From positions 1 to 64,000 of the forward strand of contig CASICJ010000025.1 of the NCBI GenBank assembly GCA_949373085.1: a DNA stretch of 64,000 nucleotides. Direction: 5' to 3'. Positions 18,081 to 36,301 of the stretch are shown piece by piece. Within the stretch, counting starts at the first letter, position 1, and each line of letters opens with the position of its first letter. A program made the position numbers and the translations under genes. This DNA is from an uncultured Verrucomicrobiales bacterium. Its GTDB lineage: Bacteria > Verrucomicrobiota > Verrucomicrobiia > Verrucomicrobiales > Akkermansiaceae. The notes beneath the pieces are model-generated. The model did not search any database. It saw only the letters and a list, made by a program, of their open reading frames with translations, and was not told where the DNA came from.

Positions 18081-19772
18081 CTATTCTTCTTCGGTACCCC
18101 CAAGGGTGACATTGATCTTATACTTATTCTGGAGGTGGGAATGGGCTTTGCTGGCTTGGCCGGATTTTGGATAGCGTTTACAAGTAAGTTGAAACGTGCG
18201 AATCGCCTTTTCTTTATCCTTTGCTTCTTCGTAGGTGTAACCGATTTGTAAACTCGCCTCAGGTGCCGACTTCTCTAGAATCTTAATCTGATTATAGAGA
18301 GTAATGGCCTCTTGATGCTCCTCAATCTTTCGATGACAATTGGCCATCGCAAAGTAGTTCGCGGGAAATCGATCGATTTGACGATAGCAGGCGATCGCTT
18401 TTTTCCAGTCCGATTGTGTTTCGTAACATCCGGCAATGAACCAGAGGTATTCGCCCGAATTATCTCCGTCGATTTCGATGATTTCACGATAGCAAGCGAT
18501 CGCCTTTTCCCAGTTGGATTGGGTCTTATAACAGCCGGCTATCGTCAAAAGATATTTAACAGAACTATCTTTATCGATTTTGATGATTTCACGATAGCAA
18601 GCAATCGCTTTTTCCCAGTCAGGTTTACTCTCATAACAACTGGCAATATTCAGAAGATATTCGACAGAATTATTTCCGTCGATTTTTATGAGTTTCCGGT
18701 AAATTATGATAGCGGCAGCAATTTTTTTCTCCTCAAGTGACATCGCTGCAAGATTTTTGAGTCCTGCTAGCTGATCTTCAAATTCGCCATAGATTTTCCG
18801 AGCTTCGTTCCTTCGGTCTCGCGACTTGTACCATTGCGCCATCGTTTCACGAAGACTGTCATTCATACCGAAACGCTCTCCAATCTCGCGATAGATTTTC
18901 ATAGTTTCGCTATGACGGCCAAGAGTTGTATTCAAATCTGCTGCTTGATAGAAGAATTGTGATGCTAACTCAGTGCGGACGGTTGCCTCGTTTCTAAGTG
19001 TCATGATTAATTGATCTCCTAGCTTTAATGCTGCAATTCTTGTTTTTTGATCTCCAAGGAGATGCTTCATTGTTTTGACGGAGAGGCTGTAAACTTGTTC
19101 GAAAAGCTTGGTCCCGGAATAGGTGGTGGAGAGAGCTTTTTTACCTTGCTCGAGCTTTTGCGCAAAACAGTGTAATTCGGCGAGTTCGTGACATGCTTTC
19201 ACGCAATCGTCTCTCGAGTTTTCGGTTCGTTCTACACTGAAAGTGAGTTCATTTAGAAGAGTAAGGCGCTCCTCCATATCCTCATGAAGGCGCGCATAAT
19301 AGAGGAGGTCCTGCCGTGCTCGCATCGCAAGTTCATGCCCAGGATATTCCTTAATGAGAAAGCGGAAGGATTTTTGAGCGTCCTTGATTTCGCCCATCGT
19401 GCGATACGCATCACCCATGCAATAGGATGCGATCGTGGCTTCAAGAGATTCAGGCCAGTAGTCTATGACAGATTGAAAGCCCTCGCGTAAAGCGGTTTTG
19501 GGCTTTTTTAGTTTCATCATAGTATGACTCCACATGAGCTGTGCGTAGGGAGCCCCAGCGCTTTTTTCATAGAGGGTCAGAAATTTTTCATATTCGGCGA
19601 GGGCGATCTTGAAACTCCCTTTAAGAAAGTGCTTCTCGGCAATTTTGATTTGATAACGTTCGACCTCCCGCATTTTTTCGAAGGTTTTGACGTCAATTTG
19701 TTGGAGTGTTGAAAGAGCTGCCGTCGCGAATGAGCCGAGGGCAAGGACAAGGCTAAGGATAACGGTAGGCAT
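18081..19772 (-). CDS. Secreted TPR-repeat protein
   Basis: N-terminal signal (VILSLVLALGSFATAALS); repeated WEKAIACYREIIKID...YLLTIAGCYKTQSN units. Confidence 0.85.
   Translation of the reverse strand: MPTVILSLVLALGSFATAALSTLQQIDVKTFEKMREVERYQIKIAEKHFLKGSFKIALAEYEKFLTLYEKSAGAPYAQLMWSHTMMKLKKPKTALREGFQSVIDYWPESLEATIASYCMGDAYRTMGEIKDAQKSFRFLIKEYPGHELAMRARQDLLYYARLHEDMEERLTLLNELTFSVERTENSRDDCVKACHELAELHCFAQKLEQGKKALSTTYSGTKLFEQVYSLSVKTMKHLLGDQKTRIAALKLGDQLIMTLRNEATVRTELASQFFYQAADLNTTLGRHSETMKIYREIGERFGMNDSLRETMAQWYKSRDRRNEARKIYGEFEDQLAGLKNLAAMSLEEKKIAAAIIIYRKLIKIDGNNSVEYLLNIASCYESKPDWEKAIACYREIIKIDKDSSVKYLLTIAGCYKTQSNWEKAIACYREIIEIDGDNSGEYLWFIAGCYETQSDWKKAIACYRQIDRFPANYFAMANCHRKIEEHQEAITLYNQIKILEKSAPEASLQIGYTYEEAKDKEKAIRTFQLTCKRYPKSGQASKAHSHLQNKYKINVTLGGTEEE
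18360..18720 (-). repeat. 105-bp (35-aa) tandem TPR-encoding units
   Basis: GATTTCACGATAGCAAGC... recurs with 105-bp spacing (ATTTCACG at 18481 and 18586), with flanking diverged copies. Confidence 0.8.
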
Positions 19773-19774
19773 AA

Positions 19775-21202
19775 TTATTTTTTGGTTCGTTCAAGCCACT
19801 TGTTGTATTCTGTGTGCGCGTAATAGATAATATTAATCCCAAGTTGATAGGAGGACTCCCAGACTTCACGTTTGACTCCAGAATGACCGTCGGCCCAAGC
19901 ATCGCCAATATCTCCGGGGTGGTAATAAGCGACAAGTCGACCGTCGACAACCCAGCCGAGAGCGTTGGATCGTCCATGTGGAGCGACGATAGGGAGACGC
20001 GGAAGTTGATAAGGAATTTGATGGATCTGATGGTCGAGATAGACATCGATAGTTTCGACACGGGGAAGAACCTTTTTCATCATCGAAACAAATTGGCCTT
20101 CCCACCCAGAGCTTCCTCCGTTGTCACCAAAGAGCATGCCGTGGTGCTCGAGTAGATAGCGACGCATGGTTTTAATCTCCATGTCGCTGAGGCTGATTCC
20201 TTCCTGTCCGGTCATGTAAACGATAGGAGGACTCTTTCGTTTGGGAAAACTCTTGAGCCGACCGATTTCCATTGGTTCGGGGCGGTCGCTAACTGGGTGG
20301 CCGGTGCGGACTCCGTATTCGGTCAACAAATTAAGATCGGAACCACGATCCATATCTTGCTCCCAGTCGCCGCCATTATATTTGAGGCGAATAAAGCGGA
20401 CCTTTCCTCGAGCTGTGCCTGATGAAAATCCCGCGCTATCTCCTTTGCCTTGTCCGATTTGATAAAGGTGTTCCGTGACTTCGAGGACTTCAAGTTTGAC
20501 GTCATCAATCGGAGGAGGATTAAAAAGGACGCTGCTGTAGGGGTTGATGACAAATTTCTTGTTGATCACCTTCTGGATTTTGACGACTTGCTTAAGTTGA
20601 ATACTATCTCCACCTCCGAGGGGAGATTCGTAGACACTACAGCCTGATAGCCTGGTTAAAATGAAGGCTGCGATACTGAAGAGTATCGTGTAGCTCACGA
20701 GGGTAAGGAGAGATTGGCGGAGTTTGTGGTTCTTCTTCCCGAAGTACCAGGCCGAAAGTCTGCGAGGATCCCAGGGATGGCTGTAGTTGGAATTAGTGGA
20801 GACGCGTTTTGTTTCGTGATCGATTCCCCAAGCAGTCCATCCAAGTCCAAGAAAGAAGGCTCCGATTGTTCCAATTTGTGAAATGCTAATCGAGAGCGCG
20901 TAGGAAAAGTTAAGAAGGGGGAGTTGAACAGCGAGTTGCCAGACTGGAAGGTAGAAAGCACTTAGAACCCCGCGGCGAATGAGGAGGGAAGACTTGCGGT
21001 GTCGGCGGACCCAAAAAAAGAGGACTGGAATCACTGATATGAAGCCGATCGCTGAGAGCCAACGATTCAGCCAAAACCAAACATGCGCGTCGATCCAGAG
21101 AAGGCACCAGAATGCTGCGTAAATCCCTGTCAACGAGATTGGGCTGCGAAGGCGGCGGGGGAGCCGGCTGCAGAGATCTTTAATCTTTTGTTGAGGGAGC
21201 AT
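19775..21202 (-). CDS. Multi-TM protein with C-terminal DUF4159 domain
   Basis: Several N-terminal TM segments; IVYMTGQEGISLSDMEIKTMRRYLLEHHGMLFGDNGG...YQLPRLPIVAPHGRSNALGWVVDGRLVAYYHPGDIGDAWADGHSG. Confidence 0.82.
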   Translation of the reverse strand: MLPQQKIKDLCSRLPRRLRSPISLTGIYAAFWCLLWIDAHVWFWLNRWLSAIGFISVIPVLFFWVRRHRKSSLLIRRGVLSAFYLPVWQLAVQLPLLNFSYALSISISQIGTIGAFFLGLGWTAWGIDHETKRVSTNSNYSHPWDPRRLSAWYFGKKNHKLRQSLLTLVSYTILFSIAAFILTRLSGCSVYESPLGGGDSIQLKQVVKIQKVINKKFVINPYSSVLFNPPPIDDVKLEVLEVTEHLYQIGQGKGDSAGFSSGTARGKVRFIRLKYNGGDWEQDMDRGSDLNLLTEYGVRTGHPVSDRPEPMEIGRLKSFPKRKSPPIVYMTGQEGISLSDMEIKTMRRYLLEHHGMLFGDNGGSSGWEGQFVSMMKKVLPRVETIDVYLDHQIHQIPYQLPRLPIVAPHGRSNALGWVVDGRLVAYYHPGDIGDAWADGHSGVKREVWESSYQLGINIIYYAHTEYNKWLERTKK

Positions 21203-21242
21203 CGCGGTTGCGTCACAATGGAAATAGAGAAATTGAGTTATT

Positions 21243-21713
21243 TTACTCTAGGTCTTTGAGAAAACTTCCTCCGTCGTCTTCGAGTGGATTGACATTTGCT
21301 GGGGCGTTTTTCTTTTCATTAACCCCAAGTGGAGCGAGAGATTCGGCGGGCTTTATTTGGTTAGGGTTAGGGTTAGGGTTGGCTTGTTTGGGCTCGGCAG
21401 CGGGAGTTACTGGATTTGTAACGATCGGCTGCTCAGGGTTAGGACTCTCTTTATTTCCAAAAAAATAAGGAATGGCGGTTAGGGCAAAGATGGCAACGAT
21501 TACCAAAATAACTGAAAGAACGATGGCTCGGATAAGTTGGCTCGACGCGACGACTCCCAGCATCTCTGGTGGGCTCTTTCCCTTTAGTTCACGAAGAAAT
21601 AGCTGGAGCTCCTGAACGGTAGCGCTTGAGTTAGCCTTAAGTTCACGGAGGTCGGCCTTGGCGCTAGCCATAGAAGTGCGAGATTCACCAGAGTTTTTTG
21701 ATTTGCCTTTCAT
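21243..21713 (-). CDS. Single-TM protein with Pro/Asn-rich extracytoplasmic segment
   Basis: Charged N-terminus, one TM (AIVLSVILVIVAIFALTAIPYFFG), then NPEQPIVTNPVTPAAEPKQANPNPNPNQ; ATGA overlap with the upstream exbD. Confidence 0.75.
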   Translation of the reverse strand: MKGKSKNSGESRTSMASAKADLRELKANSSATVQELQLFLRELKGKSPPEMLGVVASSQLIRAIVLSVILVIVAIFALTAIPYFFGNKESPNPEQPIVTNPVTPAAEPKQANPNPNPNQIKPAESLAPLGVNEKKNAPANVNPLEDDGGSFLKDLE

Positions 21714-22126
21714 TGGGAAGATAGAGGTTGTTCGGGCTCAAGGATATGAACGAGATCGCCACCGGCTTCACTGATCGCAGCGATAATGGGTTCAAAGTGT
21801 ATTGCTTTAGCTTCCTTGTGAACTTTGAGAAAGACATAGCGTTTTCCCGATGGGGTATCACCGAGAATTTGCGAAAGGGCTGCAGGAAGCGCGTCGGTGG
21901 AAATCTCTTTGCCGTCTAGGTAGTTTTTGAACCCAGTATCGATTGTGACGCTCGCTAGTGGGGAGGCGACCATTTCAACTTCCTTGAGCTTGGCTGGTTG
22001 CCAGCGAACGTGACTGTCGTCCTGCGCTCGAGCGAGTATGACGAAGAAAATAAGCAATAAGAAGCCGATGTCTCCCATCGCGAAGGAAGGAACGGATGCT
22101 GTAAGTTTTTTTCGGGGAAGTTTCAT
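21710..22126 (-). CDS. ExbD/TolR-family biopolymer transport protein
   Basis: SFAMGDIGFLLLIFFVILARAQ (conserved Asp in TM), C-terminal ExbD periplasmic domain. Confidence 0.85.
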   Translation of the reverse strand: MKLPRKKLTASVPSFAMGDIGFLLLIFFVILARAQDDSHVRWQPAKLKEVEMVASPLASVTIDTGFKNYLDGKEISTDALPAALSQILGDTPSGKRYVFLKVHKEAKAIHFEPIIAAISEAGGDLVHILEPEQPLSSQ

Positions 22127-22545
22127 TCGACGTTAATGATCCGATCTGATTCGAGTTCTAGAGTGAGGATGCCGCCTGCTTGTTCGATGACTTGTGAAAT
22201 TTTAATCCAGAGCGGGTAAGGCGTATTGGGTGCGCTTTTAACGGTGACGATGCGGTCTTCATCTCTCGTCTTTTTAGACAAGGCTGCGTTAAGCTTGAGG
22301 GGAAACTCGTTGAGTTTTAGAGGGCTTCCGTTCAGGATGATGCTGTTTGGTGTAATTGAAACTTCGATATTTTTGCTTTGTTCCTGCTTCTCAGTTTTCT
22401 CCTCAGTCTTTGGAAGGATTTGTGCGATTCCGGTCTCTGGCTGCACTGCGGCGCAGACGAGAAAGAAGATAATAAGGATGAAGGCTATATCCGAACTGGC
22501 ACTGGCCGGTGGATCGACCAACAATTTACCGCGTTTCAGTTTCAT
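22123..22545 (-). CDS. ExbD/TolR-family biopolymer transport protein
   Basis: PASASSDIAFILIIFFLVCAAVQPETG; downstream NSIILNGSPLKLNEFPLKL. Confidence 0.87.
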   Translation of the reverse strand: MKLKRGKLLVDPPASASSDIAFILIIFFLVCAAVQPETGIAQILPKTEEKTEKQEQSKNIEVSITPNSIILNGSPLKLNEFPLKLNAALSKKTRDEDRIVTVKSAPNTPYPLWIKISQVIEQAGGILTLELESDRIINVE

Positions 22546-23249
22546 GAGTTTTCCTTGTCCAGAGTCAGTCGGAGAGAAACAACTTCAATGAGCTCAGCGG
22601 CAGATGATTCAACCTGAAGAACAAAGTCATTGATGAGTCCGGTGAAGTAGTTGAAAGCCATGTAAGCTGGAATACCTACGATCAATCCGAAGGCAGTGGT
22701 GAGAAGGGCAACTCGGATTCCCGATGCGGCAGCTTGCACGATGTTCTGTTGACCGATGTTCGCTTCAATATCACCGAATGCTACGATCATCCCTTGCACC
22801 GTCCCGAGAAAACCCAGCATGGGTGCAACGGAAGCGATAGTGGCGAGAATCGGAAGATGGCGCTCGAGGACTGCAACAATATTAACCCCGTAGTTTTCCA
22901 TGCTTTTCACGACCTGTTGTTCCATTTGAGCCTGATCGTAGTTTAGACGGCGAAGGACGAGGTATTTACGAAGACCATTTGAAAGAATTGCGGGAACGGG
23001 GCCACGTGCGGAGTCACAGAGTTTTAAGGATTCTTCAACTTTATCTTCGGATAAGAGTTCGATGACTTCTTCACGGAGAGTTCCTGCATCGGTTTCAAGG
23101 AGCTTGAGGCTACGATAGCGCTCAATGATGACTGCGATAGCCATTATCAGAAGAGCAAGTAACGGCCACATGAAGGGGCCGCCTTCAAGTAGGAATTTTA
23201 GAGCGCCGGATTCAAAAAAACCGGCATCAGCGAGGTGGACTGGGATCAT
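22542..23249 (-). CDS. MotA/TolQ/ExbB proton channel family protein
   Basis: FLLEGGPFMWPLLALLIMAIAVIIERYRSL; LPILATIASVAPMLGFLGTVQGMIVAFGDIE; AASGIRVALLTTAFGLIVGIPAYMAFNYF. Confidence 0.93.
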   Translation of the reverse strand: MIPVHLADAGFFESGALKFLLEGGPFMWPLLALLIMAIAVIIERYRSLKLLETDAGTLREEVIELLSEDKVEESLKLCDSARGPVPAILSNGLRKYLVLRRLNYDQAQMEQQVVKSMENYGVNIVAVLERHLPILATIASVAPMLGFLGTVQGMIVAFGDIEANIGQQNIVQAAASGIRVALLTTAFGLIVGIPAYMAFNYFTGLINDFVLQVESSAAELIEVVSLRLTLDKENS

Positions 23250-23251
23250 GT

Positions 23252-26200
23252 TTATTCGTTTAGATTGGCTTCTTTTTCAAATTGGGAGAGAAGTTCCGGG
23301 AGTGCGAGTCTTCCCCGGGAATACTTGGCCGCGTCGCTTTCAGGGAAGTCCCACCGGCAGCGGTTGTAACGTCGAAAAGCATTGGGGATATCTCGACCCA
23401 TTCGATAACTTTCACCGGCCCAAAAAAGTGCTTGAGCAGTAAGTTCTTGGTCAGGAAACCGTTTAGTAAAGGCGTCGAATGATTTGCCCCCTTTTAGAAA
23501 TTCTTCCTGCTTGTAATGGCATTGGCCAATGCGGAACGCCATCTTCGGAGTCCATTCATGGTTTGGGAATTTCTCCAGGAATTTTTCGCCAACCGAGGCT
23601 GCAACGGAATAGTCCTCTTGAGTGTAAAAGTGTTCGTTAATACGAAGCATGACATTTGCGATGAGAGGGCTCTTTGGATAGGTTCCAGCTAAGGTCACAT
23701 ATGCTTCAAGCGCTTCATCAAGTTCGCCGGCTTCTTCGTGACATTGACCAAGTTTATACTGTGAATCCGGGGCGAGATTGTGCTCGGGGTGATTTCTGAC
23801 GATGGATCCATATGCGGCGATAGCTTCGTTCCAGGCCTCCATTTCTTGAGCGAATTGACCGAGGAGGTAGGAGACACGTGGAGCGTATTTGGGATTTGGG
23901 TAATCGTCTTGAAGATCGCGGAGAACGCGTTGCCCTGAGGTCAGCGCTGCTTCAGCCTTGGCGTCTTGTTTGAGTTTGCGTTGGCTCTTGAAGAGCTCGA
24001 AGTAGCTCTCCGCGATATGGAATTGAGTTTGGATCGCTAAGTCTTCATCTTTGTAAATCTTACTAAAGGCAGCCATTATGCCATCAGTGCCAACGGCAAC
24101 CGGCAATATACGTTTAATGATGGGTTGTCCGTCGATAGTTTGAATGACGTTATCAAGATATCCCGCGGTGATTTGATCGCCGAAGAAGCATTCGATTTTT
24201 CCTTCGAAATTTCCGGGCACCGGTTTGGGATTTGCCTGGAGGGGGAATGAACCACTGAATACTCCGCTGTGTGTCAGAGTTTCCTCTAGTTCGACTGTTT
24301 CGTCCTCACCGCTTTCGGTTATGATTCGCACTATCGCCAAATCTCGCTTTTTCGAAATATCGAGATCTGGATCGGAAAGGCGAAGGAAGAGCTTCTTGCC
24401 GACGTATGCGATTTCGGCGGGTTCTAAATATTCTTGATTGGTAATTTCGAGGCTAGCAGCAGAGAAGAGCTTTGCGGCAGCATTCAGAGTGATTTTGGAG
24501 TCATCGGGCCGTGAGGTGTCCTGGTAGATGGCTGTAAATTGGTCCGTGCCAACAACGCTTAGAATCGCCAGTGCGGCTTTAGATTTATTTTCTCCATCAT
24601 CGAGTGGGGTTTCAGGGTCGGGATCGGTCGGAATAATGATTTTCCCGAGTCCGCCTTTTGGCAAAGTGCCGTCTTCGGGAAGCATCGTGATGCTTTGCGG
24701 CGAGCCTAAGAGGAGTGGGATTTGGCCAACGAAACGGCCTTCTAAAAGAGCTGGGTTCCGAGATTCTGAAAGGGCTTCGTTCGGAGTAGCGAAGGCTCGC
24801 GATAGGACACACTCGATTTGGGTCTTCACCCCTTGGGTAGTCATGACATCGACGATCACCGTGCTTCGGGAATCCTTGGCGCGGTCGGGATCAATAACTT
24901 CAATTGTAAGAGGAAGGCGATACTCCACCTTGCTGATGTGGTCTTGTAGACGAGGCTCTTCAACGGGGAGAAACCGCATGCCACCTTCAACTGAGGTTTC
25001 ACTATCGACAATCTGGATTTGAGCTTTCGTAGGCTCATTTAAAAGGACGACTGTTTCACGGTAAAAGGCATGGCCAGGGAAGATGTTCTGCACATCTTTA
25101 TAGCGAAGGTAAACCTTGTCTCCTTGTTTGACGGTGATCTTACCTTCGGTGGCTTCGGCGGCCGTGTCGATCTCAGCGAGGAAAACCCCAGTCGAGGCAC
25201 CGGTCTCGGTTGCGGTGTATTTGAAAGGGGGGGCTGAATTAACTTGAATCTCTACCTCGACTTCATCGCGATCAAGACCGACGTCTAGATCAAAGTCGAC
25301 AATCTCAGCAACGATTCGTTCGCCGGGTTCAATACGAAGAAGTTCTTTGCGGGTTCCTTTTATCGAGCCATTTCCGCTACGATTAAAGTCGTAACTGATA
25401 GGTGTGATTTGGCCGTTGTAGTAGGTTGCAGTGAGAGACTTTGTGAGAAGGCGATTTCGTTGCTCAGCTCCAGCAGTGAGTTCATCAAGATAGGAAACCG
25501 TAACTGTGTCTCCAGGTGCGAGCTCGAGGACATCATTACTTGCGAGTTCAAGGACGTCGGCTGTGGGTGGGATATGTTTGAGTTCACCACCTGAAATTTC
25601 TACGTTGTTAATAGCGATTGCCTCGCCGCGATACTCAAGGAACTCAAAATCAATGAACCTTAGCTCACGAGAGGGCATTGAAAGGTTCCAGCGGTTTTCT
25701 TCTTGAGTGATTTCAGGAGCAGGAACTGGTTCGAAATATGGAATGTCCGCAGCGGAATCCGGATCAAAATCAATAGCGGTGAAAGGTCGCATTTTGACGA
25801 TTGATGATTGGCGATTTTCACGAGCCAGTTTTGCTTCGACTGACTTTGCTTCAGGAGTGGCGATGGTGAGGATATTGAGTTTGTGGACCCCTCGGGGAAC
25901 AAAGAGATCTACACTTTGGGTTCCTTCGCGAATCGGCATCTCCAGCTTTCCGTTAAGCATGAGCGCGGTGTTTCGCCCGGACACCTCGATTCGTATCGCT
26001 CCTTGGCGCTCTTGGACAAGTGGGCCAGACCAAAGGAGGAAGTAGGCGTCCGTACTTTCCTTCGGGGATTGCCACGAGAGAGCTTCCACTTGATTAACCT
26101 CTGTTGGTTTAACTTTTTGGACGAGGTTGGAGATCTCCTCCCATGAGTAATTTTCTTTCAGGCTTTCGGCTGAAGTCTTGAAGACTCGAAGGAGCATGTC

Positions 26201-29200
26201 AGCTTCTGGGAAATTGAGTGGTTGAGCGGGCTTTAGTGGCGGGAATGAAGCGAGGTTGAACCAAAAGCGTCCGTCGTGACTCCCTCGAATTGTCATCCGG
26301 ACTGGGGCTTCTTCGTCTGATTGGGGAGAAGTGAGAGTGATCGAGTCAGTCTTGCGGAGCTCTTTCATGTCGATTGAAAGAGACTTCGGTGCGGCACCAT
26401 CAGGCTCGCTACGCCAGGTTGTTTCGAGCGAATGATCAATTGCTTTGAGTGGGCTATGATCAAGGGCGGAATCTGAGGCTTTTGCTCCTGCGGGAAGTTC
26501 TCCGGTGCGGGACATCCCAAGAAAAACGCCGCCGTGCCGGGTCTCTTCATCGATTTTGAGTTGAACTTCATCGCCACTTGAAGTGGAGAGTTTCACGCTG
26601 ACCTTATCGGGGGTGTCAGTCAGGTCGCGGTCCCCATCCTTAACCTGAAGATAGATTAGATTACCGGGTTTCACCTGATTTCTCGGGCGAGAAGCAGAGC
26701 GTGATTGCTCCTCTTTCTTTTCTGCGATTTCCTTTTTGAGGACGTCAGTAAAACTAGCGTCTTTTTCATTAATGATTTCGCTGCTGGCCACTTCGAGTGA
26801 TCCATCGGAAGCGATTCGAAGGCGCGTGTTGCTTAGAAATTCAAACTGGAATTGCTTTTTAAAATCCTCGGGGTAATCGACAGAGATAATGTCGCCTCCG
26901 GTGACCTGTAAGACTCCATCTCCAATATTTGCCTCGCCAAGGGTAGTTGGGAATTCAGTGAGAAAGATTCCTTTGCCTGCCCCTCCACTGCTTAGGAAAG
27001 ATTCCTCACGATCATTCCCGGGCTCGGTGCGGACGATGACGGGGATGCGCGTGTCTCCCCGGCTAATCCCCAAATCTGGGTCTTGCACGACGACTGAGAG
27101 AGCCTTGCCTGGGGCATGCCAGAGTTTTGATTCCTGTCCGAGGCGTCCCACAGTACGTAGCGTCTCTAGTTGAGTAAGGAATCGTTGTTCGATTCCATAA
27201 ACTTCGGCAAGGTTGTAGAGTGTTTTGTTGGCGAGTTCGGTATCCGGAGCTTGCTCTAGGACTGAGAGAAAAATCCGTCGCGCTCGTTCGTTGTCCTCCT
27301 GTCTGATAGCGAGGACTCCTCGAAGGAAATTCGCTCGTATCGATATGGAGGGGTTGGGGTTTTCTGAAAGTGTTGTAAATATTTCTTCAGCCTGATCGTA
27401 GACGCGCTGAGCCATGTAAGTCTCGCCAATTCCAAATTGTGCTTCAATCGCCTCTGGCTGTTCCTTATAGAGATTCAGAATTGTGGTGAATTCAGCACGG
27501 GCAATGTCATATTGTCTGCCTCGCTGATAGTTACGCGCTAGAAGAAGTTGAATTTGTGACTTGTCGCGTATATCGACTTTTTCAGACTCGCTAAACTTAA
27601 GCATCCATCCACGAAGGATATCCTCAGCTTGATCATGATCTTCTGGAGTTCCTTGCGCGATGTGAATTTCTGCACCAAATAGAAGAAGTTCTATCGGAAG
27701 CTCATGGCGGTGCTTGTTGAAAAGCTCCTGATTTTGGTAATAGCTCGCCTCTGCTCGCTCGTTATCACCAAGACGAAGGTGGAGGATGGTTTGTAGAAGC
27801 GGAGCGATCGGGCTGTCTGATGAAATATCGGCACTCAGGGTTCCCATTTCTCGATAAGTCTTACCGAGAAGTTTTCGAGCCTCCGTTATTTCGGAATCAC
27901 CTACTGAACGGATGGTGTTTAGGAGTCCATTTAGGATTGTGGTTCCAAGTGAGAAATCTTTGCGAGCGAGAGCAGCCTGGGCGTAGGGGTAGATTCGCCT
28001 CCATGATTCATAATGTTGGTCGGCCGTCTTGATGAGAGCTTGTGCGCTTAGAAGTCGATCGACGGATCTAGTTGAGGTGCTGAGGAGATCGAGTCCGGCT
28101 TCACTGCTCACCCGTCCAATGCGGAGATCTCTAATTATTTTGTAAACACCCTTTTTTTTGTCTTCAGGCCAATCTTTAGAGCTTTTGGCAGTTTCGAGCC
28201 AGGAGCGAGCAGGCCACTCACCCATACCCCAAGATCGAAAAGGCGTTTGATCTGCGCGATCACGGGCTTTTTTGAGAAGCGATTGCATTCCTTCGAGATC
28301 GTCAGCCTGAAAGAGAAGGTTCGCGAGTTCAGCAGCGTAGGCTCCGTGGTAAGCAGTGTCTGCTGCTGCCCGATTTTTAAGAAAGGCCTGCGCCAGGCCG
28401 GGTTTCATAGTCGACGCGACACGTAGGGTGCAATCAACATATTCGCGGTTACTCGGGTCAAGATCCATGAAGGATTTCCACCATTGGATGGCTTCGGTTT
28501 CCATCCCAAGCTCATTCATGATGTCGCCGATCCGGGTGCTGTGAGCGGATCTATTGTCACTCTGTTCCTTTGATTTTTTGATCCATGGGATGGCCTTTCG
28601 GATCAGGGGCTCATTTTTGACTTCGACGAGGCGATACCAGGTGTCGTAGTAGGCGGGGCCGGGAGGGATTGAGAGGAGGTGGTTGGCTGCTGCAAGTTTC
28701 ATGGCCACTCGATCTTTTTCTGGAGCGTAGGCTGCAGCTTCGAGCCATTGTTCCGAAGCCGCGAGGTCTTTTGGGAATTCTTGGCAGAGCTTTTGGTAAT
28801 ACTTTGCAGCACTTTCTTTTGATTTCCCTCCAAGGTGGTGGCGATACACATACGCGAGTCGTGAAAGAACAAGGCGACGTTGTGTTTTTGTGAGTTTTTG
28901 CTGGAGAAGCTGCTGACAAGATTTACCTGATTTCCCTCCCTTTTCTTGAATGCCGTTCCAAAGATTGGCCACCGGATCGTTTTGATGAGACTTTTTAGCT
29001 ATTTGCCAGCTACGATTTTGTTCTTTATCCTTTGGGGCATTTTTCCAGATTCGATCTTGGAACCCAGCAAGATGTGGAAATGATTTTGCGCTACTACTGA
29101 TGGCTGAGAGATCTTTACGGAAGGTCTCTGGTCCGGTGGCTGATGAATAAAGGAAAGCAATAATCTCCTCCGTCCATTTATCTTCGGTTGGAGATTTTGC

Positions 29201-30379
29201 GAGAAAGTCGTAGGCAACGCTTCGTGCCTTCGCGATATCTTTTAGGCCATCTCGATAAACACTTAGTGCAAGGACAGCGCGGAAGGTTCCTACTCCGTTA
29301 GGATTTTTTGCAATAAGTTTAAGGAGGCCCCGGGCGGCAAGGGAATGATTTTCGCCGCACCATTTTACATAAGACTGGAGGAGGTTTTGAGTTGTAACGT
29401 CGTGCAGCATGACGCTCTCAGCAATGGTTAAGGCTCGAGTTAAGTCCTTGGCTTCGGCGGCCGCATTCGCTGCCTTGACAAGCGGGGTGAATCGATCATC
29501 GCGCTTAGGAAAGGCCGCTAGATACTTTTTCGCTTCCGATTCAATTGCGGAAGGGGGTTTCTTTGCGCTGATCATGGCGTCGATCAGGCTGCTATGAACA
29601 TCAGCCCGCTTTGATTTAAGAGCCTGGCGATATGATTGAATTGCATTTTCAAATTGTCCTAATTTTGATTCAAATCGACCGGTGCGAAACCATAAATCTT
29701 GTTTTTTGAGTTCATTGATGGGGGCATTTCGGCGAATGAGAGTTTTTGCGATTTGAAGCCCTTCGGCCCATTGCTCTGCTCGCTCGGCGGCGTGCATCCC
29801 CTGAAAGCCAACTCCAGTGAGTAGCGAAGTGGCGGGGATCTTCACAACCATCGCAGCTGCTAGGCTGGAGGCCCGGTTGAATGAGGCGCCATCATTGACC
29901 TGATTGAAGAGACCGAGGGCTTTGATGCCCTGGCTAGTAGAGCCGTTATTTTCCCAAATAGTTTGATACTCAATTGCGGCAAGATTACCGCGGCCGGTGT
30001 TCTCATATGCAGTCGCAATGTATTCTCTTACTCTGTTAGTAAGAGTGTGCCCTGGGAAGATTTCCAAGAATTGGCGCCCGGTCATTATCACGTCGTCATG
30101 GCGAGCCGTTACGGTATACCCTTCAACGAGCTTAAGGGTCATCGCGGCGCGTTTGGGGTTCTCAGTCTGGGCGCGCGAAAACTTCGAAGTGGTGCGAATG
30201 ATCCCGAAGACCTTTTCGTCCTTCCAGTAGAGGTCCACTAGTTCCTCCATCAGTTTTCCCCCTGAGGAAGATGATTCTGTGGTTTCCTTAAGCTTTGCCT
30301 CAAGGTCGATAGCTTGGTCGGCATGCGCCGGCATGCTTAAGAAAAGAAGTAGAGCGAGTTGAGGGATAAGTGTTTTCAA
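23252..30379 (-). CDS. Giant (2375 aa) secreted TPR protein with central repeated beta-type modules
   Basis: Signal peptide (LIPQLALLLFLSMPAHADQ); TPR-like arrays at N- and C-termini; central recurring motifs HxGVF / GDxIxxxYxD. Confidence 0.88.
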   Translation of the reverse strand: MKTLIPQLALLLFLSMPAHADQAIDLEAKLKETTESSSSGGKLMEELVDLYWKDEKVFGIIRTTSKFSRAQTENPKRAAMTLKLVEGYTVTARHDDVIMTGRQFLEIFPGHTLTNRVREYIATAYENTGRGNLAAIEYQTIWENNGSTSQGIKALGLFNQVNDGASFNRASSLAAAMVVKIPATSLLTGVGFQGMHAAERAEQWAEGLQIAKTLIRRNAPINELKKQDLWFRTGRFESKLGQFENAIQSYRQALKSKRADVHSSLIDAMISAKKPPSAIESEAKKYLAAFPKRDDRFTPLVKAANAAAEAKDLTRALTIAESVMLHDVTTQNLLQSYVKWCGENHSLAARGLLKLIAKNPNGVGTFRAVLALSVYRDGLKDIAKARSVAYDFLAKSPTEDKWTEEIIAFLYSSATGPETFRKDLSAISSSAKSFPHLAGFQDRIWKNAPKDKEQNRSWQIAKKSHQNDPVANLWNGIQEKGGKSGKSCQQLLQQKLTKTQRRLVLSRLAYVYRHHLGGKSKESAAKYYQKLCQEFPKDLAASEQWLEAAAYAPEKDRVAMKLAAANHLLSIPPGPAYYDTWYRLVEVKNEPLIRKAIPWIKKSKEQSDNRSAHSTRIGDIMNELGMETEAIQWWKSFMDLDPSNREYVDCTLRVASTMKPGLAQAFLKNRAAADTAYHGAYAAELANLLFQADDLEGMQSLLKKARDRADQTPFRSWGMGEWPARSWLETAKSSKDWPEDKKKGVYKIIRDLRIGRVSSEAGLDLLSTSTRSVDRLLSAQALIKTADQHYESWRRIYPYAQAALARKDFSLGTTILNGLLNTIRSVGDSEITEARKLLGKTYREMGTLSADISSDSPIAPLLQTILHLRLGDNERAEASYYQNQELFNKHRHELPIELLLFGAEIHIAQGTPEDHDQAEDILRGWMLKFSESEKVDIRDKSQIQLLLARNYQRGRQYDIARAEFTTILNLYKEQPEAIEAQFGIGETYMAQRVYDQAEEIFTTLSENPNPSISIRANFLRGVLAIRQEDNERARRIFLSVLEQAPDTELANKTLYNLAEVYGIEQRFLTQLETLRTVGRLGQESKLWHAPGKALSVVVQDPDLGISRGDTRIPVIVRTEPGNDREESFLSSGGAGKGIFLTEFPTTLGEANIGDGVLQVTGGDIISVDYPEDFKKQFQFEFLSNTRLRIASDGSLEVASSEIINEKDASFTDVLKKEIAEKKEEQSRSASRPRNQVKPGNLIYLQVKDGDRDLTDTPDKVSVKLSTSSGDEVQLKIDEETRHGGVFLGMSRTGELPAGAKASDSALDHSPLKAIDHSLETTWRSEPDGAAPKSLSIDMKELRKTDSITLTSPQSDEEAPVRMTIRGSHDGRFWFNLASFPPLKPAQPLNFPEADMLLRVFKTSAESLKENYSWEEISNLVQKVKPTEVNQVEALSWQSPKESTDAYFLLWSGPLVQERQGAIRIEVSGRNTALMLNGKLEMPIREGTQSVDLFVPRGVHKLNILTIATPEAKSVEAKLARENRQSSIVKMRPFTAIDFDPDSAADIPYFEPVPAPEITQEENRWNLSMPSRELRFIDFEFLEYRGEAIAINNVEISGGELKHIPPTADVLELASNDVLELAPGDTVTVSYLDELTAGAEQRNRLLTKSLTATYYNGQITPISYDFNRSGNGSIKGTRKELLRIEPGERIVAEIVDFDLDVGLDRDEVEVEIQVNSAPPFKYTATETGASTGVFLAEIDTAAEATEGKITVKQGDKVYLRYKDVQNIFPGHAFYRETVVLLNEPTKAQIQIVDSETSVEGGMRFLPVEEPRLQDHISKVEYRLPLTIEVIDPDRAKDSRSTVIVDVMTTQGVKTQIECVLSRAFATPNEALSESRNPALLEGRFVGQIPLLLGSPQSITMLPEDGTLPKGGLGKIIIPTDPDPETPLDDGENKSKAALAILSVVGTDQFTAIYQDTSRPDDSKITLNAAAKLFSAASLEITNQEYLEPAEIAYVGKKLFLRLSDPDLDISKKRDLAIVRIITESGEDETVELEETLTHSGVFSGSFPLQANPKPVPGNFEGKIECFFGDQITAGYLDNVIQTIDGQPIIKRILPVAVGTDGIMAAFSKIYKDEDLAIQTQFHIAESYFELFKSQRKLKQDAKAEAALTSGQRVLRDLQDDYPNPKYAPRVSYLLGQFAQEMEAWNEAIAAYGSIVRNHPEHNLAPDSQYKLGQCHEEAGELDEALEAYVTLAGTYPKSPLIANVMLRINEHFYTQEDYSVAASVGEKFLEKFPNHEWTPKMAFRIGQCHYKQEEFLKGGKSFDAFTKRFPDQELTAQALFWAGESYRMGRDIPNAFRRYNRCRWDFPESDAAKYSRGRLALPELLSQFEKEANLNE

Positions 30380-32553
30380 AATCCTGCTTTTTTGAGGGCT
30401 TCCACGATTTTATTAGCTTCTGTGGCAATGTCACTTTCGGGATAGTCGCGGATGAGATGTTCGAATTTTTGGCGGGCTTCGGGCTTTTTCTTAAGCTTGT
30501 AGAGACAACGGCCATAATTGAAGAGGATGACATCTAAAAAATTGGCGTCGGGATAGTCAGAGAGAACATTTTCAAAGACGTCAACGGCGCGCGCGTAATC
30601 TTCTTTCTTATAATAGAAGGCAGCCATTTTTGCGACAGAATCCCCAACCCGGCCCGAATCAGGAAACTGCTCGTAGACTTTTTGGTAGGCTAGAAAAGCT
30701 TTCTCATAGAGACTGGCGGATTGTCCGGTGGTGGCTTTCAAGGCCATGGCTTCATAGCACTCACCGGTGAAGAATTGACCTTCACCTTTTAAAGGGCTTT
30801 CTGGGATTTTGGCGATACTTGCATAGAGGTTGATAGCGCGTGGGAAATTCTCGCGCTTTCGCTCAACATGGGCTTGTTGTAGCATCGCCTCGTCCACGAA
30901 TGAGCTGGATGGAAATTCATTCAGGAGACGTCGACTCATGCCAAGTGCGAGGTCTAGCTTATCCATAGCGAAGTAGATCCGCCAAAGTTGCACATAAGTT
31001 TGCTCGAGGAGGGTTCCTCCAACCTTTTTGGCTTGAACGAGGATTTCCTCACAGACATCAAGAGCTTCAGCATATTTATAATTGGCCTTTTCGTTGAGAC
31101 CAAATTCCTTGTAGTGATTGCCTACTTCGGTAAGTGCCGAGGCGGTTTGAAGTTTCGTTTTAAGTCGAAGTTCTTCGTCGGAAATTTCGGTCCGAGTGAC
31201 GCGTACTTCGCCGAGGTTTCCCTCAATGATTTTGGTTTCAGAGGTGAGAATCATGGTGCCTTCGCCGAGGTTCTGATCGTCTCGGTAAACGAGTCGGACG
31301 ATTTGGCCGGGTTCGCCGGTGAGAGTGTTGGCGGCGGTCGAAAGCCGGAGAGGGATTGCGAGACGGAAAGTTCCTCGTTGCTCTTGTTCACGTAAAGTTA
31401 CAGGAACGGCTCGGACCATGAGGAGGGGTTCAATCTGAGATTTCAAATCTTCCCCGTCAGGGCCCTCTTCAAGTTCTCCCCTTGCGACTCCTTTCGCGAG
31501 TTCCGCGTCAATTTCATCGGGCGTTTTACGCCGAAAAACTTGAACGGTGGCTTGGACCTGGTCGGCTCCGTTAGTGGTGTCGTGATCGGCGTCGGTGACC
31601 TGGAGGTGAAGTTGCTTTCCAAGAACTGCTGCAGGGAGATTATGGAGGTAAGACCCGTCCGTGATACGCGCTACTCCGTTGCCCACAACTATGACTTCCT
31701 TAAGGCGCTTTGCGTTGGTGTCTTTTTGAGCGGTTTGGGCATCGATATAAGTGACTGTGATCCGATCTCCGCCGCGAACTTCGAGGGTGCCATTATTGGG
31801 CGAAGCTTGATTGAGCTGGGTTGGGATTCGACCCATCACGATTCGAGCATTTCGACCAACAGGATCACAGACGACTGTTTCTTCATCGCCACCTGTGGTA
31901 AGGCAGCGAACTTTGATTTGAGAACCAGGTTCTAGAATAGCGAAATCCTGATCATCGATTTTCACATAGAATCGTTTCCCAGCTTCGACTTTTTCGATGA
32001 GTGAATCCTTGCTTGAAAGAGCGGTTCCTACTTTTTCTAGTGCTTCGATAGCGCGGCTGTAATGCCCAAGTTTGAAATGCCCAAGACCAATGTAGTAGTA
32101 AGCTTCATTGATCTCGGAGGAAGTTGGGAATTGCTCGATGACATCGCGCATGATGCCGAAGCACTTTCCGTAGTTACCCGCTTCGTAGAAGCAGGTTCCA
32201 ATATTTAGGAAAGCGTAGGCTCGCTTGGCATCATCCCCATTAGCCTCAATCGCAGCGGACTCGTAATGGATGCGTGCTCTGGCGAAGTCTTTGATTTCTA
32301 GGAGAAGATGGTCGGCAAGCCGGAGGTGGGCTTCGAAACGGATTTGGCTCCGTGGATAGCGCTCTACGACAGACTCCCAAATCTCGAGGGCCTTTTCGTT
32401 TTCACCAACTTCGAGTCGCGCATCACCGGCCTGCAAAAGCTTGCGGGCTGCGCGGTCCTCTATGATCGATCCACGTTCGACGACCTTTGGAGATTGAGCA
32501 AAGAGGGGAAGAGTGAGGAAAAAAGGGAGGAATCGTTTAATGAAGCTTCTCAC
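30376..32553 (-). CDS. Secreted TPR protein (725 aa) with the same central module type
   Basis: Signal peptide (FLPFFLTLPLFAQ); TPR units (NEKALEIWESVVERYPRSQIRFEAHLRLADHLL); GGDRITVTYIDAQ, GQIVRLVYRDDQN; ATGA overlap with the giant gene. Confidence 0.87.
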   Translation of the reverse strand: MRSFIKRFLPFFLTLPLFAQSPKVVERGSIIEDRAARKLLQAGDARLEVGENEKALEIWESVVERYPRSQIRFEAHLRLADHLLLEIKDFARARIHYESAAIEANGDDAKRAYAFLNIGTCFYEAGNYGKCFGIMRDVIEQFPTSSEINEAYYYIGLGHFKLGHYSRAIEALEKVGTALSSKDSLIEKVEAGKRFYVKIDDQDFAILEPGSQIKVRCLTTGGDEETVVCDPVGRNARIVMGRIPTQLNQASPNNGTLEVRGGDRITVTYIDAQTAQKDTNAKRLKEVIVVGNGVARITDGSYLHNLPAAVLGKQLHLQVTDADHDTTNGADQVQATVQVFRRKTPDEIDAELAKGVARGELEEGPDGEDLKSQIEPLLMVRAVPVTLREQEQRGTFRLAIPLRLSTAANTLTGEPGQIVRLVYRDDQNLGEGTMILTSETKIIEGNLGEVRVTRTEISDEELRLKTKLQTASALTEVGNHYKEFGLNEKANYKYAEALDVCEEILVQAKKVGGTLLEQTYVQLWRIYFAMDKLDLALGMSRRLLNEFPSSSFVDEAMLQQAHVERKRENFPRAINLYASIAKIPESPLKGEGQFFTGECYEAMALKATTGQSASLYEKAFLAYQKVYEQFPDSGRVGDSVAKMAAFYYKKEDYARAVDVFENVLSDYPDANFLDVILFNYGRCLYKLKKKPEARQKFEHLIRDYPESDIATEANKIVEALKKAGF

Positions 32554-32558
32554 GTTAA

Positions 32559-33812
32559 TTAAGCGAATAGTTCGTTGATCGGGTTTGCTTCCTTGCGGAC
32601 CAGTTGGATCGGGCGCCCTTGGGGAGTGGTGAGTTCCTTGTTTAGATCGATGCCAAGAGCATAACAGAGGGTGGCGTGAAGGTCCGCGACCTTGACTGGG
32701 CGTTCGGCGACTTCCATACCATCAGGATCTGATGCTCCAATGATGCTCCCTCCCTTGATTCCACCGCCAGCCATCATACAGCTAAAGACACGGGCCCAGT
32801 GATCGCGTCCGCCACCATCGTTGATGCGCGGAGTTCTTCCAAATTCACTAAGAACGACAATCAGGGTTTTCTCAAGTTTACCGTTTGCCTTGAGATCTGA
32901 AATGAGAGAGGCGATCGCCGGGTCCATATCAGCTCCGTGATTTCGCATTGCTTCAAAGATGTTTCCGTGGTTATCAAATCCGCCGCGATTGACTTGAACG
33001 AAGCGAACCCCTTGCTCTACAAGACGGCGTGCCAGAAGAGCTCCGCGTCCGAATTCGGTATCACCATACTTTTCGACAGTAGCCGAGTTTTCCTCTTTGA
33101 GGTCAAACGCCTTGAGAGATGGACTTTCCATAAGGGCTACGGCGTCCTTCAGTGCTGTTTGAGAAGCCTTTAATTCCTCCGCGCCATTCTGAGCCGAGGT
33201 ACGGTGATTCATCTTCTCTAAGATTTGAAGGCGTTGCATACCACGGGCGTGGCTGATCCCTTCAGGAAAGGTTAGGTAAGGATCTTTTTGTCCGGGCCGC
33301 CCAACAAAATAGGCTTCACATTGCTGTCCGAGATAGCCGGCGCGAGCGGCTTGTCCGCTAATGCTCACAAGGGCGGGGAGGTCGCCGAGTGGCTCTCGCT
33401 CATGTGCAACTAGCGAGCCAAGTCCTGGGTGCATGATATTGGGCGATTGATTGAAGCCGGTTTGAAGCTCGTATTGAGCTCGACCATGATCGCCGTTGGT
33501 TCCTGCAATGGAGCGAATGAGAGCTCCGTGGTGCATTTGTTTCGCAAGCTGGGGAAAGATTTCTGAAATCTCCATGCCGTCGACCGAAGTTTTGATAGGG
33601 TTAAATTCGCCCTGAACCTTGCGTCCGGGTTTTGGATCCCATGTATCGAGGTGACTCATGCCTCCGCTATTCCAAAAAAGGATGACGTGTTCAGCTTGTG
33701 CGTTTGAAGATGCGCCTTGAGCGAGAAGCTGGTTTACAGGCATTCCAAGGAGGCTTGCGCTGAAGGTCTTCAGCATGCGGCGTCGGGTGTATTGGTAGTC
33801 GGAACAAGACAT
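32559..33812 (-). CDS. DUF1501 domain-containing protein
   Basis: YTRRRMLKTFSASLLG; ILFWNSGGMSHLDTWDPKPGR; VVLSEFGRTPRINDGGGRDHWARVFSCMMAGGGIKGG. Confidence 0.93.
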   Translation of the reverse strand: MSCSDYQYTRRRMLKTFSASLLGMPVNQLLAQGASSNAQAEHVILFWNSGGMSHLDTWDPKPGRKVQGEFNPIKTSVDGMEISEIFPQLAKQMHHGALIRSIAGTNGDHGRAQYELQTGFNQSPNIMHPGLGSLVAHEREPLGDLPALVSISGQAARAGYLGQQCEAYFVGRPGQKDPYLTFPEGISHARGMQRLQILEKMNHRTSAQNGAEELKASQTALKDAVALMESPSLKAFDLKEENSATVEKYGDTEFGRGALLARRLVEQGVRFVQVNRGGFDNHGNIFEAMRNHGADMDPAIASLISDLKANGKLEKTLIVVLSEFGRTPRINDGGGRDHWARVFSCMMAGGGIKGGSIIGASDPDGMEVAERPVKVADLHATLCYALGIDLNKELTTPQGRPIQLVRKEANPINELFA

Positions 33813-35877: not shown

Positions 35878-36301
35878 TTCTTGTTGGCATGGCAACCCGT
35901 TTAGGCATCTCAGGTTTGCGCTCGGTAAGGGTGACGCCTTCCGGCCATTCTGCACCTGATTCGACCCAGGCATCAAGAATGGCAACTTCTTCAGGTTTCA
36001 GGCCCTTTCCTTCATCTGGCATAACACCCTCATCGATAGGGCGAAGATGGATTCGGAGTAAAAGTTCACTTTCATCGGGTTTGCCTGGGACGACGGCATC
36101 AGAAGTGTCACCGCCCTCCATTAGCTTTTCATAAGTGTCGATTCTCAATCCGCCCTTGGTCTTTGACTCGGTGTGGCAGCGAACACAATTTGTTTCAAGG
36201 ATAGGCTGGACCGCCGTCTTGAAGTTAGGGCCAGCTGCAAAGGACGGTAAGATAGCCGCGAAAGCGAATAAAGAACGGGTAATGAGTGGGTTATCGTTCA
36301 A
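35873..36301 (-). pseudogene. PSCyt1 heme domain, 5' part of the same gene, separated by an apparent +1 frameshift at a C5 run
   Basis: Signal peptide; FKTAVQPILETNCVRCHTESKTKGGLRIDTYEKLMEGGDTSDAVVPGKPDESELLLRIH. The frame turns into non-homologous QCRRCHHARRSFATRECRHRSH after VAMPTRTP. Confidence 0.65.

What the first reader, a model, noticed from the sequence alone, without database searches (positions are those of the whole stretch)
18081..32553. Candidate ExbB/ExbD-powered secreted TPR machine
Eight consecutive minus-strand genes: secreted 725-aa TPR protein, 2375-aa secreted TPR/beta giant, ExbB/TolQ, ExbD, ExbD, single-TM Pro/Asn-rich protein, multi-TM DUF4159 protein, secreted 563-aa TPR protein. 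Four junctions are 4-bp ATGA overlaps (30376-30379, 22542-22545, 22123-22126, 21710-21713), so co-expression is likely. ExbB/ExbD families are established proton-driven motors that act on periplasmic partners. No TonB, TolA, TolB, Pal or TonB-dependent receptor is encoded here. Inference: a dedicated motor coupled to a very large periplasmic TPR scaffold, perhaps for envelope assembly, polymer transport or surface adhesion/motility.
Basis: partly seen in the sequence, partly recalled or inferred. Interest (0 to 1): 0.85.

Follow-up and report, generated by a model that had tools for sequence, protein, structure and literature searches.

The report
PVC envelope motor with giant TPR protein
A group of water, sediment and gut bacteria (the PVC superphylum) carries an unnamed, conserved gene cluster that pairs a proton-driven inner-membrane motor with a 2,300-2,900-residue secreted scaffold bearing sugar-binding-type folds, probably a machine that pulls or moves long sugar polymers in the cell envelope.

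Summary
In detail: eight tightly packed minus-strand genes at 18081-32553 encode TPR, giant TPR/beta, ExbB, two ExbD, single-TM, five-TM DUF4159 and TPR proteins. The cluster is real and ancient. A scan of 84,980 species' genomes found 54 further loci, all in PVC lineages apart from one doubtfully labelled MAG. Of the 30 loci with enough flanking sequence, 28 carry ExbB, two ExbD and the 725-aa-type TPR protein, and 27 carry DUF4159. The single-TM protein belongs to a family with a TonB/TolA-like helix; 28 of 30 relatives keep a helix His, but the window's own lineage has Val. The two ExbDs are two old paralogue lines. The same genome has separate TonB and TonB-dependent receptor genes, so this is not the TonB system. 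The giant's model contains F5/8C (CBM32)-like, PA14-like and S-layer Ig-like folds. The operon probably also starts with PSD1 and DUF1501 genes. Best reading: a dedicated proton-driven envelope machine, analogous to AglRQS-Glt/Nfs, that engages glycan polymers. Motor and cluster are well supported; the polymer role is inference. Related PVC loci with a vWA transducer were published in 2025; this giant + short-transducer + DUF4159 version was not found described in the library searched.

The parts
30376..32553 (-). TPR725: secreted 725-aa protein, TPR - beta domain - TPR; starts GTG 5 bp after DUF1501
   Evidence: (25-32% identity to relatives, 55 invariant columns)
23252..30379 (-). GIANT: secreted 2375-aa protein, TPR (about 1-1070), beta/CBM-like region (about 1075-2095), TPR (about 2100-2375); TTG start
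   Evidence: domain limits approximate
26246..26482 (-). F5/8 type C (CBM32-like) domain of GIANT, aa 1300-1378
   Evidence: Pfam E 1.8e-5, just under cut-off; Foldseek CBM32; profile vs PDB CBM32 E 0.024
25808..26197 (-). PA14-like beta domain of GIANT, about aa 1395-1524 (limits inferred from the model's strands)
   Evidence: Foldseek: PA14 sugar-binding domain of MpAFP, TMt 0.53, E 2e-5
22542..23249 (-). ExbB/TolQ-type motor subunit, 235 aa
   Evidence: Pfam MotA_ExbB 96.7 bits; tree
22123..22545 (-). ExbD1 (first lineage), 140 aa, membrane Asp kept (SDIAFILIIFF)
21710..22126 (-). ExbD2 (second lineage), 138 aa, membrane Asp kept (GDIGFLLLIFF)
21243..21713 (-). TM156: TonB/TolA-like transducer candidate; cytoplasmic N-terminus, one TM helix (aa 63-81, SVILV in place of SxxxH), Pro/Asn-rich linker, acidic C-terminal tail
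19775..21202 (-). DUF4159 protein, 475 aa: four to five TM helices, then DUF4159 domain (aa 269-462) predicted periplasmic
   Evidence: (FHA N-terminus in two relatives)
18081..19772 (-). TPR563: secreted 563-aa TPR protein, last gene
32559..33812 (-). DUF1501 protein, probable operon member in the window's lineage
   Evidence: 358.8 bits; adjacency kept in G415, G395, G259
33850..36301 (-). PSD1-type gene with N-terminal cytochrome-c-like CxxCH part, probable first operon gene; reading frame interrupted in this assembly near 35.9 kb

Best explanation
The cluster encodes a dedicated trans-envelope machine driven by the proton gradient. ExbB with one ExbD1 and one ExbD2 forms a rotary-type motor in the inner membrane. 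TM156 (and possibly DUF4159) carries the motor's motion into the periplasm. There it acts on a scaffold of the 2375-aa GIANT and two smaller TPR proteins. GIANT carries lectin/CBM-type and Ig-like beta modules between two TPR blocks, so the machine most likely holds and pulls or moves a glycan polymer across or along the outer envelope, in the manner of the Myxococcus AglRQS-Glt/Nfs machines. Shown: genes, their conservation as a unit, intact ExbD proton-site residues, two ExbD lineages, domain folds (predicted). Inferred: complex formation, 1:1 ExbD pairing, force transfer, glycan as the load, direction of transport.
For: Conserved unit: 54 loci in PVC genomes, 28/30 with full motor when flanks suffice. 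Two ExbD paralogue lines, each tied to its gene position (3 label changes against 25 in shuffles), as in the one-TolQ/two-TolR make-up of AglRQS (PMC3169522). Membrane Asp present in both window ExbDs. Conserved single-TM family with His in 28 of 30 relatives at the place where E. coli TonB (SVCIH) and TolA (SAVLH) have SxxxH. F5/8C, PA14 and S-layer-Ig folds in GIANT. FHA + TM helices + DUF4159 in two relatives fixes the topology and recalls GltG's FHA. Separate TonB system in the genome. Several loci per genome in some lineages, e.g. two complete clusters in one finished chromosome, which suits cargo-specific copies rather than housekeeping. DUF1501/PSD1 co-operon in the window's lineage; PSCyt/PSD genes were linked to carbohydrate use by context (PMC5615132).
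Against: No outer-membrane barrel or pore is among the conserved genes, so the path across the outer membrane is unknown. The window's TM156 has Val instead of His, as have its two nearest relatives, which weakens motor coupling through it here. Fold matches do not show sugar binding; the F5/8C Pfam match is in 1 of 13 members and below cut-off, and whole-model TM-scores are low because the query is multi-domain. No CAZyme or sulfatase is a constant neighbour. No expression, interaction or phenotype data exist.
Confidence: 0.5

Rival explanations
1. Envelope-integrity machine: a Tol-Pal-like system in which the motor and the TPR/GIANT scaffold (CpoB/BamD-like TPRs) tether or constrict outer membrane and wall; the beta modules bind peptidoglycan or O-antigen rather than nutrients.
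For: ExbB scores best against TolQ (108.7 bits) and ExbD1 against TolR (30.4 bits), TPRs against YbgF/CpoB and BamD, with TolQ and TolR scores below the cut-offs; TM helix resembles TolA.
Against: No TolB or Pal in the cluster; patchy (6 of 286 genomes of the class, 25 of 146 of another) and multi-copy, unlike a housekeeping system.
Confidence: 0.17
2. Gliding or adhesion machine: the motor moves GIANT along the envelope and surface-exposed beta modules grip the substrate.
For: Same parts list as AglRQS-Glt: one TolQ, two TolR, giant TPR protein, TPR partners (PMC3169522).
Against: No Glt outer-membrane proteins among the conserved genes; GltE/GltJ models far below cut-off; no motility data for any carrier.
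Confidence: 0.15
3. Assembly or export of an S-layer or proteinaceous cell coat: GIANT is itself a coat or coat-assembly scaffold.
For: Beta modules match the anammox S-layer model (E 7.6e-10) and the Nitrosopumilus S-layer (E 5.8e-4).
Against: TPR blocks at both ends and a dedicated motor are unusual for a coat protein; no S-layer gene is a constant neighbour.
Confidence: 0.12
4. The eight genes are only neighbours and the motor serves the ordinary TonB receptors.
For: ExbB/ExbD are promiscuous families; TonB and receptors exist in the genome.
Against: Same eight-part cluster across PVC phyla; cluster ExbBs group apart from the genome's other ExbBs, with moderate support; own TonB locus has its own ExbB and ExbD.
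Confidence: 0.04

Closest known systems
PVC TPR-TolQ-TolR-TolR-vWA loci (Tichowtungia type), PMC12204202
   Same: TPR gene, one TolQ, two unlike TolRs, TonB/TolA-like single-TM transducer with the His-containing helix, PVC group, function unknown
   Different: Here the transducer ends in a short tail and no vWA domain was found in the representatives scanned; adds a 2,300-2,900-aa GIANT and a five-TM DUF4159 protein. Whether some loci are the same could not be checked
Myxococcus AglRQS with Glt or Nfs complexes (PMC3169522, PMC3858216)
   Same: One TolQ plus two TolRs, giant TPR protein (GltI 4132 aa), smaller secreted TPR proteins, transducer, FHA domain (on DUF4159 in two relatives; on GltG there)
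   Different: No Glt barrels, no TonB_C domain; homology of GIANT to GltI not tested; DUF4159 and beta/CBM-like modules are extra
Tol-Pal system
   Same: TolQ/TolR-type motor, TolA-like helix, CpoB-like TPRs
   Different: No TolB, Pal or TolA domain III in the cluster
TonB-ExbB-ExbD system
   Same: ExbB and ExbD families, TonB-like topology of TM156
   Different: No TonB_C, no receptor; two unlike ExbDs; a separate TonB system exists in the genome
Hoch_4089 (PDB 4i66), Haliangium ochraceum
   Same: Fold of the DUF4159 domain (TMt 0.81, E 8.7e-11)
   Different: No function named in the entry title; solved chain is a 200-residue domain without the TM part

Membership tests
TonB-ExbB-ExbD system | ExbB and ExbD present with proton-binding Asp | tested here: met
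TonB-ExbB-ExbD system | TonB C-terminal domain in the transducer | tested here: not met
   no TonB_C match in TM156 or relatives; genome's TonB_C proteins lie on contigs 3 and 47
TonB-ExbB-ExbD system | linked TonB-dependent receptor | tested here: not met
   none among the cluster proteins; receptors on other contigs
Tol-Pal | TolQ and TolR equivalogs | tested here: not met
   108.7 bits vs cut-off 221 and 30.4 vs 127.3: related, not equivalog
Tol-Pal | TolA, TolB and Pal in the cluster | tested here: not met
   absent from the eight genes; rest of the genome not searched
AglRQS-Glt/Nfs | one TolQ with two distinct TolRs | tested here: met
AglRQS-Glt/Nfs | giant TPR protein and secreted TPR partners | tested here: met
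   architecture only; sequence homology to GltI not tested
AglRQS-Glt/Nfs | Glt family proteins by model | tested here: not met
   GltE 25.4 bits vs 225, GltJ 14.7 vs 450
vWA transducer loci (PMC12204202) | TonB/TolA-like TM helix with conserved His | tested here: inconclusive
   His in 28 of 30 relatives, Val in the window and its two nearest relatives
vWA transducer loci (PMC12204202) | vWA C-terminal domain | tested here: not met
   no vWA match in transducers or accessory proteins scanned
DUF4159 (PF13709) | model match over cut-off | tested here: met
   103.9 bits vs 25.9
Carbohydrate-binding modules (CBM32/PA14) | fold | tested here: met
   Foldseek on a pLDDT 83 model
Carbohydrate-binding modules (CBM32/PA14) | sugar binding | not testable with these tools
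   needs binding assays

The most novel reading that the evidence does not exclude
A previously unnamed class of proton-driven polymer-handling machine, spread over the PVC superphylum, in which a rotary 5:2-type motor with a mixed ExbD pair drives a giant lectin-like TPR scaffold through a minimal transducer; it could be the engine for high-molecular-weight polymer uptake in these bacteria.
Probability: 0.3. Interest if true: 0.9.

Novelty: new variant of a known kind. Interest (0 to 1): 0.72.

Why it matters
Mot/Tol/Exb motors power few known outputs. A motor fixed to a giant TPR scaffold with sugar-binding-type folds, kept over several PVC phyla and duplicated in some genomes, would be a new output. 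It would also give a concrete genetic target for how PVC bacteria, many of them polysaccharide degraders, move large polymers through their envelope. One finished chromosome carries two complete copies, so knock-outs are conceivable.

Tried and rejected
Standard TonB system: rejected. Chance neighbours: rejected. Orthologues in most genomes of the window's own family: none found in the g2 genomes searched, so the cluster is patchy there. The giant's many weak hits to 770-1,100-aa proteins are generic TPR matches and were set aside. A fixed vWA partner was looked for and not found in representatives. A link to the Akkermansia mucin-uptake loci was a lead from memory; no open paper with those genes was held, so it is not used. 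Papers naming DUF4159: none in the library. Promoter and terminator scans were at or below the shuffled level and uninformative.
Full report
OBSERVATION. The eight genes exist as described. Pfam and NCBIfam place them as TPR, DUF4159, no family, ExbD, ExbD, MotA_ExbB, TPR giant and TPR. Gaps between genes are -4, 2, -4, -4, -4, 40 and 2 bp; the first overlap is TTGA rather than ATGA. A same-genus genome (G415) has the same eight genes in the same order; dN/dS was 0.015-0.054 for the six cluster genes where it could be computed. The dS estimate failed for the 156- and 563-aa genes, and dS is near saturation elsewhere, so the ratios are rough.

CONSERVATION. A search of 241 genomes of the phylum found 2,500-2,800-aa homologues of the giant (1,547 aa in one) in genomes of other classes. 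Twelve loci around them hold the same partners. A profile scan of genome contigs returned 54 loci from Lentisphaerota, Kiritimatiellota, Verrucomicrobiota and Planctomycetota MAGs; one is labelled Candidatus Nealsonbacteria, probably mislabelled. Same-strand partners over all 54, many of them on cut contigs, are ExbB 44, ExbD 42, TPR725 36, TPR563 30, DUF4159 30. Restricted to the 30 loci with room, ExbB, two ExbD and TPR725 are each in 28 and DUF4159 in 27. The exceptions include two loci of one Planctomycetota genome without a motor nearby (L052, L099). The scan used two peptide patterns, so it is not exhaustive. In the window's class 6 of 286 genomes had full-length TPR725 matches; in another class of the phylum 25 of 146 genomes matched. 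The finished chromosome of a same-family genome (G395, 5.68 Mb) carries two complete clusters, one window-type and one of the commoner type.

ANATOMY. Two orders dominate: TPR563-TPR725-GIANT-ExbB-ExbD-ExbD-TM-DUF4159, or GIANT first. The window order puts TPR563 last. Many relatives have two further genes absent from the window: one of about 130-240 aa between GIANT and ExbB, and one usually of about 330-460 aa after DUF4159; Pfam gives no family over cut-off in those scanned. In the window's lineage DUF1501 and PSD1 lie directly upstream of TPR725, with gaps of 5 and 37 bp, and the adjacency is kept in G415, G395 and G259. PSCyt/PSD genes have been linked to carbohydrate use by context only (PMC5615132).

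MOTOR. Both window ExbDs keep the membrane Asp. In a tree of 37 pairs the first and second ExbDs separate with 3 label changes against 25 in shuffles; L061 has the order swapped. The tree rests on few columns and the window rows are long branches. Cluster ExbBs group apart from the genome's other ExbBs, with moderate support (88/66).

TRANSDUCER. Between ExbD2 and DUF4159 lies a single-TM protein, about 140-200 aa, in the 30 loci read. Its helix has a His in 28 of 30, usually preceded four residues earlier by Ser or Ala, where E. coli TonB has SVCIH and TolA SAVLH. Many end in a conserved tail such as IPxxPxDLGISIEDTN. The helix His is described as essential to motor contact in TolA and TonB (PMC12204202). 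The window, G415 and window-type G395 proteins have Val there, so in this branch coupling may be by another contact; G395's second cluster keeps His. No statistical test of homology to TonB/TolA was made: one helix is too short, so this is a resemblance.

GIANT. AlphaFold2 on a 43-row alignment of aa 1075-1625 gave pLDDT 83. Foldseek returned Nitrosopumilus S-layer, CBM32, GH31 xylosidase and PA14 sugar-binding domains; profile against PDB sequences gave the same S-layer protein (5.8e-4) and weak CBM32 (0.024). Query TM-scores are low since single domains match a multi-domain model. Pfam sees F5/8C in the window member only, at 25.3 of 28.2 bits. So the folds are lectin/CBM-like; sugar binding is unproven.

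DUF4159. Five predicted TM helices in most relatives (four found in the window protein at the threshold used). Two relatives have an N-terminal FHA domain, a cytoplasmic module, which puts the DUF4159 domain in the periplasm if the helix number is odd. The domain model (pLDDT 82) matches Hoch_4089 (PDB 4i66) at TMt 0.81, with amidotransferase-type enzymes far behind.

NOT TONB. The genome has two TonB_C proteins and six TonB-dependent receptor matches over cut-off elsewhere; one TonB lies beside its own ExbB and ExbD on contig 3.

MECHANISM AND RIVALS. From established knowledge of Mot/Tol/Exb motors, ExbB with an ExbD pair converts proton flow to motion. One TolQ plus two TolRs, a giant TPR protein and smaller secreted TPR proteins is also the make-up of Myxococcus AglRQS-Glt, and the Agl-Nfs machine moves glycan strands over the spore surface (PMC3858216). 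With lectin-type folds in GIANT, a glycan-moving or -pulling machine is the most likely reading (0.5). Envelope integrity, gliding/adhesion and S-layer assembly remain open. The missing piece is any conserved outer-membrane pore.

NOVELTY. The 2025 survey reports PVC loci with TPR, tolQ, two tolR and a vWA transducer, function unknown (PMC12204202). The present clusters share the motor and TPR theme but have a tail-only transducer, GIANT and DUF4159. No paper in the library names DUF4159. Only open-licence papers were searched, so novelty is provisional. Filed as a new variant of the known Mot/Tol/Exb-driven envelope systems.

Noticed in passing
window 33850-36301 (-): The PSD1-type gene is split into two frames here but is one open frame in the same-genus genome G415; a frameshift near 35.9 kb, assembly error or real not distinguishable.
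   Followed up: partly
L134:3557-7136 (own genome contig 22): A second ExbB-ExbD pair followed by a 792-aa secreted protein, perhaps another small motor cluster.
   Followed up: no
L118 and L136 (G395 contig 1, about 0.29-0.32 Mb): Second complete cluster in a finished chromosome with two giants in tandem and a His-bearing transducer, beside a window-type cluster at 4.2 Mb.
   Followed up: partly
L067:20305-22371, L096:17743-20067: DUF4159 proteins with an added N-terminal FHA domain, hinting at phospho-control of the machine.
   Followed up: partly
L052 and L099: Giants in one Planctomycetota MAG without a nearby motor; they may share a motor encoded elsewhere.
   Followed up: no
L121:1210-14815: Divergent cluster with a single ExbD, DUF4159 moved upstream and a transducer with SAFLH; possible intermediate form.
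   Followed up: no
L057 and L073: Lentisphaeria clusters whose transducer helix lacks the His, an apparently independent loss from the window's lineage.
   Followed up: no
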